The position numbers were made by a program, and so were the translations under genes. From assembly GCF_032108445.1 (NCBI RefSeq), contig NZ_CP134876.1:4092001-4156000 (forward strand): DNA of 64,000 nt. The letters are read 5' to 3'. This DNA comes from Micromonospora halotolerans. GTDB lineage: Bacteria; Actinomycetota; Actinomycetes; Mycobacteriales; Micromonosporaceae. The notes under the pieces are model-generated. The model worked only from the letters and a program-made list of their open reading frames with translations. It was not told where the DNA came from and did no database searches. Shown here one piece after another: positions 57,801 to 62,227 of the stretch. The first letter of the stretch is position 1. Every line of letters starts with the position of its first letter.

Positions 57801-58222
57801 GCGACGGACGAGTCGACCGGGCGGTCGCGTCGGCGGGCTGCGGCCCGCCGCCGAGGAACGTCCGGACTCCACAGGGCAGGGTGGTTGCTAACGGCAACCC
57901 GGGGTGACCCGCGGGACAGTGCCACAGAAAACAGACCGCCGGCCCGATAAGGGACGGTAAGGGTGAAACGGTGGGGTAAGAGCCCACCAGCATCCCGGGT
58001 GACCGGGATGGCTCGGTAAACCCCACCCGGAGCAAGGCCAAGAAAGGGCCGTCACCGCAAGATGACGACCCGCGCAGACGCTTGAGGGCTGCCCGCCCGA
58101 TGTCTGCGGGTAGGCCGCTGGAGCCTGCCGGCGACGGTAGGCCGAGATGGATGGCCGCCGCCGGCCGCCCCTCGGGGCGTGCCGGTCACAGAATCCGGCG
58201 TACAGGTCGACTCGTCCGTCGC
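57801..58222 (+). ncRNA. rnpB: RNase P RNA (bacterial class A)
   Basis: All conserved elements are present: P1 GACGGACGAGTCGACC pairing with GGTCGACTCGTCCGTC at the 3' end; CR I GAGGAACGTCCGGACTCCAC; CAGGGTGGTTGCTAACGGCA; GGGTGACCCGCGGGACAGTG; CCACAGAAAACAGACCGCC; CR IV GGTAAGGGTGAAACGGTGGGGTAAGAG; AAACCCCACC; and AGATGGATGGCCGCC before the terminal ACAGAATCCGGCGTACAG. Length (about 422 nt) fits actinobacteria. It is the catalytic subunit that matures tRNA 5' ends. The last 34 bases are duplicated 3,989 bp downstream as part of a 50-bp repeat. Confidence 0.97.
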
Positions 58223-58238
58223 CCACCAGGTCAGCCGC
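58189..58238 (+). repeat. attL-like 50-bp repeat at rnpB 3' end
   Basis: Identical over 50 bases to 62178-62227. It starts in the terminal CAGAATCCGG of RNase P RNA, covers the 3' strand of P1 and continues 16 bases past the gene, so integration restored the gene end. Confidence 0.9.
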
Positions 58239-58430
58239 TCACACATCGCGGCTGGCCTGGCGTTTCTTCGGGTGCTGGTGGTCGTCGTCGGTCGTCATTG
58301 GTCGCCGTCCGACGGCCCACTGACGGCCCCGACGGCCCAGCGGCGGCCCAGCGGCGGCCCAGACCCGCCGAGCAAGCGGCTTGCCCCTGAGGCCGCCGGC
58401 AACATTGCCGCCAGCCCGTAGAGTGCCGCT

Positions 58431-58616
58431 GTGGATACGAGATCAAGTCGGGGCGTAGGCATCGTCGGGACGATCGCAGCGGTTGTTGGTGCCTGCTGGC
58501 TCGTGTTGCTCGCCGACCGCGGCTTCCCTGAGTGGCGGTTCGTGGCCGCCGTCACGCTGGTTAGCGGCCTGCTGCTGCGAATCGAGGCAGCAGTGCGAGA
58601 ACGCGGACGCCCTTGA
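58431..58616 (+). CDS. Small membrane protein (element cargo)
   Basis: 61 residues from a GTG: VGIVGTIAAVVGACWLVLLADRGF and FVAAVTLVSGLLLRIEAAVRERG are two membrane spans with a short cytoplasmic end. There is no strong RBS. It could be genuine or chance; codon bias is acceptable. No family is recognised. Confidence 0.45.
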   Translation: MDTRSSRGVGIVGTIAAVVGACWLVLLADRGFPEWRFVAAVTLVSGLLLRIEAAVRERGRP

Positions 58617-58815
58617 GACTTGCGGCCAGGTCGGGGAGTTGAAGCTGAACTTCGGGCCTCGCTCAGCCCACCAGTGCCGGATAGCTGCTCACACGGCGTC
58701 TGAGGCTTGCCATGGTTGCTCACTGGTCGACAACCTTTGACGGTGTCTTGTGCCCCCTGTGTTCCCACGCGCCTGGATCTCTACATTCCTCCGAAGGCCT
58801 GACAGACTCCGCGAT

Positions 58816-59208
58816 ATGCGAACTTGGGCCATCGCGGTTACGGCCGTCGCCGCCACGCTTGTTGCGATACCAGTGACGACCGCGCTCGCCATGGGGTACT
58901 ACCCCCGCCCGGATTGCTTCGACCGTGCCCCCTTCGACGAGGTGGCGACGAAGCTACCGCCGCCTCCGACCCTAGACGCGTTCGATTCGGTCGATGCACC
59001 TGACAAGATCGGCTCGTGTGACATTGGGTCGTCATACGGGGTGAAGGGCGGCTACATCTTCTACGCTGTCGACAGCCCTGGCCTCGACGATTCTGGATGG
59101 GGTTACTTCCCGAACGGGCCGGACGGTGACCTTGGAAACGGTGAGTGGGAGGGGCCACAGTTCGAACAGATCGAGGGACCCTGGTACCACTGGACGGCAA
59201 GCTGGTAG
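58816..59208 (+). CDS. Secreted hypothetical protein (element cargo)
   Basis: 130 residues from an ATG at a good signal peptide (MRTWAIAVTAVAATLVAIPVTTALAM). The mature part is acidic and has two cysteines (RPDCFDRAPF, KIGSCDIGSS) that may pair, and aromatic/glycine-rich sequence near the end (GWGYFPNGPDGDLGNGEWEGPQ). An upstream in-frame start exists, but its extra residues are basic and would disturb the signal. No domain is recognised; codon bias is weaker than in neighbours outside the element. Confidence 0.6.
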   Translation: MRTWAIAVTAVAATLVAIPVTTALAMGYYPRPDCFDRAPFDEVATKLPPPPTLDAFDSVDAPDKIGSCDIGSSYGVKGGYIFYAVDSPGLDDSGWGYFPNGPDGDLGNGEWEGPQFEQIEGPWYHWTASW

Positions 59209-59552
59209 ACGGCATTGTCGAGCTGCCGGAACAGTCCACCATCGTCCGGGGCGTCAGCTCGAACTCAACCACGAACGACTGAAGGTCTTCCTGCCATCCC
59301 GTCTGCCGCCGACCCGCCCTGCTGGGGGAGCGGGCCGCCGCACGGCATCCGGCCCGGTATTTCGTTCCTGAAGGTGCCGGAGGGGAAGCGTGACGAACCA
59401 AGAATCGGTTTCCACCTAGGGACTGCCGGTATCCAGCGGCCCCGGTCGGGTGACCAAGGCCGGCCCGGAGGGCAACTCGACCTGTTCTGCGTCGAGCGCA
59501 GTCAGGAGCATCATGGCCGATGTCAATCGTCCCGCTGATCTAGGGTGACCTG
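59209..59552. other. Gene-free stretch within the element
   Basis: No convincing coding sequence, RNA or repeat is visible. Short frames of fewer than 110 codons exist on both strands but lack RBS and family features. Confidence 0.5.
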
Positions 59553-60509: not shown

Positions 60510-60709
60510 GCCCGTTCGGCCGGGCTGCTGGCCAAGCCGTAGCCGTCGACAGCGTCACGCAGGTCCTGATACCGATGTGTCACGCAGGTCCCGAGACCGG
60601 ACACCGCCGGCAGCCGGCTGTCCTACTCCGCTTGATGGGTTACGCGGTGGCGGGTTCGCTGGCTACCGACTGTGCGGCGGGTCGGAGGCCCTCGATCGAC
60701 GGCCCGACG

Positions 60710-61204
60710 CTAACCCACGAGGCTCTTGGTCATGACGTGCTCGCGGCGTACTCCGTCGGGCATGAGGTCGCCGAGTTCACCCGTGTCACGGAAGCCGTTC
60801 CGTTGGTAGAGGGTCCAGGCGTTCTTGTTGCCCTCTACAACGGCCAGCCGCAGCGTCCGCGCGCCCACCAGCCGAGCCCACTGCTCGACCGCCCGCACGA
60901 GGTGGTCGCCCACGCCTTGGCCACGTCCCACAGGTGCCACGTACATCGAGATCAGCTCCACGACTCCGTCGTGGTCGGTCGGCACCCCGCTGGCCATCCC
61001 GACGGGTTGCCCGTCGAGCATCGCCAGGATGTTGTACGAGCCGGGGATGGCCAGTCGCCCGCGCCAGCGTTCCTCGCGGTCGCCGTCGCCCTGCCAGTCC
61101 GCCAGCTGGGAACCGAAGGCGTACCCGGCCTCCGCCAGCGCAGCGAGCCGCAGTTCCCGCCACATCTTCCAGTCGCCCTCGCCGAGAGCACGTGTATCGA
61201 TCAT
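60710..61204 (-). CDS. GNAT family N-acetyltransferase (element cargo)
   Basis: 164 residues from the ATG at 61204 (MIDTRALGEGDWKMWRELRLAAL). VVELISMYVAPVGRGQGVGDHLVRAVEQWA carries the acetyl-CoA loop RGQGVG, and NKNAWTLYQRNGFRDTGEL is the C-terminal motif. Small-molecule acetyltransferase, substrate unknown. 18-bp identical sequences (GACACCGCCGGCAGCCGG) at 60600-60617 and 61341-61358 flank the gene, possibly marking its insertion as a unit. Confidence 0.82.
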   Translation of the reverse strand: MIDTRALGEGDWKMWRELRLAALAEAGYAFGSQLADWQGDGDREERWRGRLAIPGSYNILAMLDGQPVGMASGVPTDHDGVVELISMYVAPVGRGQGVGDHLVRAVEQWARLVGARTLRLAVVEGNKNAWTLYQRNGFRDTGELGDLMPDGVRREHVMTKSLVG

Positions 61205-61473
61205 GCGGAGAGGGTTTCGCAGGCGTGGCGAGCAGGCAACCCGGTATCTGGTGACGCGGTGTGACGACCAGGTGGCCCTGTTGGACGGCGGACTGTCACC
61301 TGTCATCCGACACCGATCCGTAGCGCATCAGCTGGAGCCCGACACCGCCGGCAGCCGGCCGGATAGGCGGTATTGGTGAGTCGTAGCCGGCGCTTCGTCT
61401 GTACATGTCGCTCGTCTCGTGGGCCTACGAGGTCTCTCGCCAGAACCTTTCGGGCACGCTGCCTCGCCGGTGA

Positions 61474-61822
61474 GCTCATGTTCAGGGTGTCGCCCTGAAG
61501 GCCCGGACGCTTACCGCAGCTGCCGGTGACGACGGGCCCCTGTTGGAGGCAGCCGCGATTCTTCACGATGTCGGCTACGCACCTCACCTAGCTAAGACAG
61601 GCTTTCATCCGCTGGACGGCGCAATCTATCTTCGAGGCTTGGACGCGCCCGATCGCGTGGTCCACCTGGTAGCGCATCACTCCTGTGCTGTTAGGGAGGC
61701 TCGTCTACGTGGGCTCGACGGACACCTGGCCGCCTTTCATGACGAAGAAGGTCCGGTGAGAGACGCGCTTTGGATGTGCGACCTCACCACGACGCCCGAC
61801 GGAGAGCCTACGGACTTTGCGG
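61474..61822 (+). pseudogene. HD-domain protein, both ends lost
   Basis: The frame begins after a stop at 61471 with AHVQGVALKARTLTAAAG, which corresponds to the middle of an HD helix, then LLEAAAILHDVGYAPHLAKTGFHPLDGAIYLRG with the HD dyad, and VHLVAHHSCAVREARLRGLDG and MCDLTTTPDG. The start and the first His-bearing helix are missing, and the 3' end passes out of homology at about 61810, where recombinase sequence begins in another frame. It is a phosphohydrolase remnant fused by deletion. Confidence 0.72.
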
Positions 61823-62131
61823 ACCACCACCTGGCGCAAGTCGATCAACCGCTGCTGGTTCGACCCCAAGATCTGGCGATCGGCCGTCACGGCGGCCGGC
61901 ATCGTGCCGTCGAGATCGACCGGCATGCACGCGCTGCGGCACTTCTACGCCTCGGCGCTGCTCGACGCGGGGGAGAGCATCAAGGCCCTCGCCTCCTACC
62001 TCGGCCACTCCGACCCCGGATTCACCCTTTGGGTGTACACGCACCTCATGCCGGCCAGCGAGGAACGCACCCGCAACGCCATCGACCGACTGTTCCGGCC
62101 CCGGGTGCTTGACGGCCCAGAGACGGCCTGA
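61817..62131 (+). pseudogene. C-terminal remnant of tyrosine recombinase (integrase)
   Basis: About 100 residues that keep the catalytic block: H38-A-L-R41 (MHALRHFYASALLDAGESI), H64 in YLGHSDPGF and nucleophile Y74 in WVYTHLMPASEERT. The first catalytic Arg, the Lys and the entire DNA-binding N-terminus are missing, so it cannot act alone. It ends 46 bp before the right 50-bp repeat and points toward it, as in integrative elements of actinomycetes. Confidence 0.85.
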
Positions 62132-62177
62132 GGTGGGAGAGTGGCCGTCTTCCCCCAGCTCGCGCCCATGCTCTCAC

Positions 62178-62227
62178 CAGAATCCGGCGTACAGGTCGAC
62201 TCGTCCGTCGCCCACCAGGTCAGCCGC
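62178..62227 (+). repeat. attR-like 50-bp repeat
   Basis: Identical to 58189-58238, including the last 34 bases of rnpB. The rest of the RNA gene is absent here, so this is the element-borne duplicate created by integration. Confidence 0.9.

What the first reader, a model, noticed from the sequence alone, without database searches (positions are those of the whole stretch)
58189..62227. Integrative element with the RNase P RNA gene as its attachment site
A perfect 50-bp direct repeat spans the 3' end of rnpB and recurs 3,989 bp downstream, with a tyrosine-recombinase C-terminus 46 bp inside the right copy. The left copy leaves rnpB intact, as integration into tRNA or tmRNA 3' ends does. Use of rnpB as an attB is far less familiar than tRNA genes. 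The seam and contents are directly readable; that integration caused the duplication is the inference.
Basis: partly seen in the sequence, partly recalled or inferred. Interest (0 to 1): 0.82.

Follow-up and report, generated by a model that had tools for sequence, protein, structure and literature searches.

The report
Mobile element inserted at RNase P gene
The end of this bacterium's single RNase P RNA gene is flanked by what looks like a decayed conjugative element that once docked there, and related elements and phages of other actinobacteria carry a copy of the same gene end beside their integrases, a role usually played by tRNA genes.

Summary
A perfect 50-bp direct repeat (58189-58238, 62178-62227) spans the last 30 nt of a complete, single-copy class A rnpB (57809-58218). 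It is the only exact repeat of 30 nt or more in the window, and a tyrosine-integrase C-terminus ends 46 bp before the right copy.

The window holds a remnant: an HD gene fused to an integrase tail. In ten loci of relatives a related integrase lies between rnpB and a second copy of its 3' end; one 15.4-kb interval, checked with Pfam, is an AICE (FtsK-type Tra, RepSA, Xis-like, Int). Among the 80 best integrase homologues the core lies downstream in 20 of 23 with at least 65% identity and in none of 57 below. All 20 Micromonosporaceae pairs compared share a segment of about 27 nt at the rnpB 3' end. IMG/VR contigs carry the core 14-115 bp from integrases of a separate deep clade.

Not everything fits: several second copies lack an integrase, and the clean empty site was not found; the same-species strain has one copy but a rearranged right flank. 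My paper searches found no report of rnpB as attB. I call it a new variant of a known kind.

The parts
57809..58218 (+). rnpB, class A RNase P RNA, complete; the attachment-site gene
   Evidence: RF00010, 276 bits, model 1-367; only copy in the genome
58189..58238 (+). left copy of the 50-bp direct repeat (attL): last 30 nt of rnpB plus 20 bp
   Evidence: only exact repeat of 30 nt or more in the window
58194..58220 (+). about 27-nt segment shared by attL and attR in all 20 Micromonosporaceae comparisons; the exchange should lie here (inferred)
   Evidence: the script required a 26-nt core and two pairs carry one mismatch in it
58205..58224 (+). imperfect dyad ggtcgac-TCGTCC-gtcgccc (6 of 7 arm positions, 6-bp spacer), possible integrase core sites; overlies the 3' strand of the terminal rnpB helix
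   Evidence: best of many placements, not tested against chance; helix arms 57801-57818 / 58205-58222
58226..58260 (+). terminator-like hairpin after rnpB; left arm 58226-58238 inside the repeat, right arm 58248-58260 in element DNA
   Evidence: fold -27.9 kcal/mol, z -5.6, against -17.1, z -1.8 at the right copy; terminator function inferred
58239..62177 (.). interval between the repeats; GC 66.1% against 72.2% for the window
   Evidence: not present after rnpB in G253 and G009
59553..60221 (+). HAD-family hydrolase gene in the interval (cargo or later arrival)
   Evidence: PF00702, E 1.2e-14
60710..61306 (-). GNAT acetyltransferase gene in the interval (cargo or later arrival)
   Evidence: PF00583, E 6.3e-20
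61342..61817 (+). decayed HD-domain gene region, 77% identical in DNA to an HD gene in locus L100, which also carries a related integrase
61817..62131 (+). C-terminal fragment of a tyrosine integrase, 76-84% identical to integrases in rnpB loci of ten relatives' loci
   Evidence: PF00589
62178..62227 (+). right copy of the 50-bp repeat (attR)

Best explanation
[quoted passage not shown] The attP carries a copy of the last 25-30 nt of RNase P RNA (3' strands of P4, recalled, and P1) and, in relatives, is followed by a complete hairpin, so insertion leaves an intact rnpB joined to element DNA. The element later lost most genes, leaving an HD gene fused to the integrase tail beside attR. Shown by sequence: the repeat, the intact rnpB, the association of one integrase clade with this core, an AICE at the same site in a relative. 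Inferred: the recombination itself, the crossover position, terminator function, the order of decay.
For: Exact unique repeat with intact rnpB. Integrases 76-84% identical to the fragment in ten further loci, each with a second core. One such interval, L069, holds FtsK_SpoIIIE, RepSA, HTH_17 and a full integrase. Core downstream of 20 of 23 homologues with at least 65% identity, 0 of 57 below. Whole rnpB at the left copy in five of five non-Micromonospora loci with both copies on one contig. HD gene and integrase tail abut where a related locus has about 8.5 kb between them.
Against: No Rep, Tra or Xis among the seven interval ORFs given to Pfam, so AICE origin of this copy rests on the integrase tail and the HD gene. 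Several second cores in relatives have no hit to the integrase fragment in the stretch fetched: L038, L042, L049, L051, L054, L058, L071, L072. Three homologues with at least 65% identity (L087, L088, L098) lack a core in the stretch held. No clean empty site in the same species.
Confidence: 0.9

Rival explanations
1. The 4-kb interval was never one element: copies of the rnpB end were left by successive insertions at a hot spot, and the genes between them came in separately and were trimmed by deletion.
For: A third decayed copy lies 4.3 kb further on; tandem copies occur in relatives, and flanks right of attR resemble left ends of other elements; HAD and GNAT genes are not tied to AICEs by any search.
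Against: The integrase tail lies 46 bp from attR, close to the 71-102 bp seen for several intact integrases, and the 50-bp copies are identical, as expected of one recent insertion.
Confidence: 0.3
2. The insertion was a phage that uses rnpB, not an AICE.
For: IMG/VR contigs carry the core beside integrases, two of them checked for phage genes.
Against: The 22 viral integrases form a separate clade and 21 of 22 lie on the other side of the core, antiparallel to it; the window's fragment is on the AICE side and 76-84% identical to those integrases.
Confidence: 0.04
3. A segmental duplication or chance repeat of the rnpB end without site-specific recombination.
For: The right copy alone does not show recombination.
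Against: The same short segment recurs beside one integrase clade in several genera and never beside the 57 more distant homologues listed; control patterns read backwards gave no match.
Confidence: 0.02

Closest known systems
AICEs such as pACPL of Actinoplanes (PMC3364876, passages seen) and pSAM2
   Same: int, xis, repSA and an FtsK-type tra gene; integration leaving a target RNA gene whole; pACPL also has a metal-dependent phosphohydrolase gene
   Different: pACPL uses a proline tRNA gene (43-nt identity segment); here the target is rnpB, and the window's copy is a remnant
Integrase homologues of Streptomyces and others beside the 3' ends of glnA and nusG (found here)
   Same: same integrase family, about 50-54% identity to the rnpB integrases, next to the 3' end of a conserved gene
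   Different: protein-coding neighbours; no rnpB core within the stretch held; their own repeats were not mapped
Integration into 3' ends of tRNA and tmRNA genes (recalled)
   Same: direct repeat equals the gene's 3' end, gene kept whole, integrase near one end
   Different: the gene is the RNase P RNA; the repeated segment covers 3' strands of P4 and P1 rather than a tRNA stem-loop

Membership tests
3'-end integrators of structural RNA genes | direct repeat that begins in the gene's 3' end and leaves the gene whole | tested here: met
3'-end integrators of structural RNA genes | tyrosine integrase gene near one repeat | tested here: met
   fragment 46 bp from the right copy; full-length genes in relatives
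3'-end integrators of structural RNA genes | empty site in a close relative | tested here: inconclusive
   G253 and G009 have one core but altered right flanks; G015 against G017 agrees, though that flank may be mobile itself
3'-end integrators of structural RNA genes | recombination of attP with attB shown | not testable with these tools
   needs an experiment
AICE (the window's copy) | RepSA, FtsK-type Tra, Xis | tested here: not met
   none among the seven interval ORFs scanned; hence called a remnant
AICE (the window's copy) | integrase of the AICE family | tested here: met
   C-terminal fragment, 76-84% identical to integrases in relatives
AICE (relative, L069) | int, xis-like HTH, RepSA, FtsK-type Tra between attL and attR | tested here: met
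   15.4 kb between copies
AICE (relative, L069) | excision and conjugative transfer | not testable with these tools
   needs an experiment

The most novel reading that the evidence does not exclude
Each insertion rewrites the 3' end and terminator of an essential ribozyme, so mobile elements may shape RNase P RNA itself.
Probability: 0.6. Interest if true: 0.72.

Novelty: new variant of a known kind. Interest (0 to 1): 0.6.

Why it matters
It would add RNase P RNA to the universal RNA genes that mobile elements use as docking sites, explain the variable DNA after rnpB in Micromonosporaceae, give a simple rule for finding such elements (look for a second rnpB 3' end), and offer integrases for site-specific vectors in these bacteria. 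If separate integrase lineages converged on it, one can ask directly what makes the 3' ends of essential RNA genes attractive.

Tried and rejected
Phage records (INPHARED): no match to the window's 81-bp att region; no match to a viral rnpB integrase at an E limit of 1e-30; a 37-nt core of the viral type gave 43 records at E up to 10, only 2 covering at least 80% of it, both unannotated, not followed. Plasmids: one weak match, not followed. In G639 and G762 a tblastn with one AICE integrase found nothing between the copies and the few ORFs scanned held no tyrosine integrase, so those pairs rest on the repeat alone. A second viral motif gave whole rnpB genes in 16 of 18 stretches and one more attP-like case, L252. 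Convergence is not proven: the trees are quick ones with SH-aLRT only and a midpoint root, and one early gain with later losses is not excluded. The core dyad was the best of many placements and was not tested against chance. Many extra core matches in family genomes lie on other contigs or strands and were not examined. Ten paper searches; passages seen in PMC3218068, PMC5462765, PMC2705793, PMC2824730, PMC8776855, PMC3364876, PMC10383233 and PMC10763512; PMC7460540, PMC13137831, PMC10673834 and PMC3701705 seen in listings only. None of what I saw describes rnpB as an attB. Two papers were not held.

Full report
Check of the observation. The 50-bp repeat is exact at 58189-58238 and 62178-62227. 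Rfam places a complete class A RNase P RNA at 57809-58218, the only one in the genome, so the left copy covers the last 30 nt of the gene plus 20 bp. It is the only exact repeat of 30 nt or more in the window. The integrase fragment 61817-62131 matches the C-terminal part of PF00589. A third, decayed copy lies outside the window at genome 4158530; G032 has a copy at the homologous place. The genes right of 62227 may therefore lie in an older remnant; that is inference.

The window's element. The interval holds HAD and GNAT genes and a decayed HD region, 77% identical in DNA over 61342-61817 to an HD gene of L100, directly followed by the integrase tail. In L100 the HD gene and the integrase lie about 8.5 kb apart. 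An internal deletion that fused the two is the simplest reading. GC content is 66.1% against 72.2% for the window. None of the seven interval ORFs given to Pfam is a Rep, Tra or Xis gene; the other ORFs were not scanned.

Relatives. Of 61 genomes searched, 39 have the 35-nt pattern with up to 3 mismatches. I fetched 40 longer loci from 34 of the 39, own genome included; G011, G035, G036, G051 and G055 were not taken in that form. The window's fragment finds integrases at 76-84% identity in 10 loci besides its own, each with a second core. The distance from rnpB to the second core is 14.3-19.3 kb in seven of these (L036, L048, L057, L061, L064, L069, L073) and 4.4-5.6 kb in three (L037, L044, L053). 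In L069, between the copies, Pfam finds GntR, a family-2 glycosyltransferase, FtsK_SpoIIIE, RepSA, HTH_17 and a full integrase: an AICE. Similar ORF starts appear in the other long ones but only L069 was checked with Pfam, and the integrase of L057 is split. Against this, second cores in L038, L042, L049, L051, L054, L058, L071 and L072 have no hit to the integrase fragment in the stretch fetched; some are weak matches and may be old remnants.

Specificity. A scan of GTDB genomes kept the best 80 of 559 loci with a relative of the L069 integrase. A core with at most 4 mismatches lies in 20 of the 23 with at least 65% identity and in none of the 57 below; the 65% line was drawn after seeing the result. 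In the 18 of these measured, it starts 71-3240 bp past the matched end of the integrase. The exceptions are L087 and L088, which lie beside the 3' end of a GNAT gene (L087 by Pfam; L088 by ORF start), and L098. Among the 57, 20 were labelled glnA and 2 nusG by a motif; one of each was confirmed by Pfam. In the quick tree the rnpB label needs 4 changes against a shuffled mean of 20.4; several loci repeat genomes already seen. In the five non-Micromonospora loci with both copies on one contig (Winogradskya consettensis, Actinoplanes lutulentus, two further Actinoplanes, Dactylosporangium aurantiacum) the left copy is the end of a whole rnpB. For the genera whose copies lie on different contigs this was not checked.

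Where the exchange lies. In 20 attL/attR comparisons from 18 Micromonosporaceae loci, own included, the shared blocks are 29-50 nt; the script required a 26-nt core, and two blocks carry one mismatch in it. Their overlap is about 27 nt, 58194-58220 here. A dyad at 58205-58224 overlies the 3' strand of the terminal helix. The hairpin after rnpB has its left arm inside the repeat and its right arm in element DNA; two relatives' elements begin with like hairpins. That it ends transcription is inferred; hairpins of other sequence also follow rnpB in genomes with one core, so it may be the gene's ordinary terminator.

Empty site. Same-species G253 has one core. It is colinear to 58236 and again from 62974, with 953 bp of unrelated DNA between; the few nt after its core fit the flank of the window's right copy better than the left, a weak hint. 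G009 has about 935 bp of other DNA there, including a 60-nt match to 62387-62446, which suggests that this flank is old. The stretch 62331-62876 matches another place in G253 at 87%. The best unoccupied site is between other species: DNA 76 nt past attR of G015 lies 133 nt past the single core of G017, 86% identical over 1.1 kb; it also lies 720 nt past the core of G006, so it may be mobile itself.

Prevalence. 302 of 354 family genomes have the core with at most 2 mismatches. In the window's genus 77 of 160 rows, own included, show two or more matches; I copied these counts by hand into, and they include copies on other contigs and strands. Of 396 genomes drawn over the phylum 37 matched and 5 had two matches, three of them outside the family. 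In those three a whole rnpB ends at the left copy. G468 (family f8) has a broken integrase beside rnpB, about 32% identical to AICE and 28-30% to phage integrases. G639 and G762 showed no integrase.

Phages. 26 stretches from 25 IMG/VR contigs carry the core exactly. In 22 an integrase lies 14-115 bp away; in the other four the core is near the edge of the stretch held. Of 17 stretches given to Rfam, one (L220) held a whole rnpB. The 22 integrases form one clade with SH-aLRT 100, apart from the AICE clade, and three tested are 34-38% identical both to AICE rnpB integrases and to a glnA one. In 21 of 22 they lie right of the core and antiparallel; AICE integrases lie left and parallel, as does the 22nd, L214. 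L218 and L225 carry phage-type recombination genes. In 15 of 22 the exact match through the core to the rnpB end of G639 or G762 is 33-40 nt, in 7 it is 13-20 nt.

Known or not. Ten searches of the open-access library found no paper that describes rnpB as an attachment site. Most subscription journals are not held, so this does not prove novelty. The mechanism is of a known kind; the target gene, and its use by phages as well as AICEs, are what appear new.

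Noticed in passing
L240, L242, L244, L250, L255, L256 (IMG/VR stretches): Whole class A RNase P RNA genes lie among many tRNA genes, at times directly abutting them. L240 also has a portal-protein gene, so at least one seems to be a phage that carries its own RNase P RNA. L240 and L250 look like near-copies.
   Followed up: no
L039, L041, L054, L056, L059 near the rnpB 3' end: rnpB of these five Micromonospora genomes reads CACAAAATCC where most read CACAGAATCC, a base of the Rfam consensus. Some attR copies carry the same A, so insertions may have rewritten it.
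   Followed up: no
L087, L088: Two Micromonospora integrases from within the rnpB clade lie beside the 3' end of a GNAT gene with no rnpB core in the stretch held: a possible switch of target.
   Followed up: partly
L208, L209 (G639): Between two rnpB 3' ends 25.8 kb apart lie a type IIG restriction-methylation gene and an NsnB-like ATPase gene, perhaps a defence island.
   Followed up: partly
57689-57748: A 29-nt inverted repeat (86% complementary, 2-nt gap) just upstream of rnpB, between it and the convergent or divergent TauE gene region.
   Followed up: no
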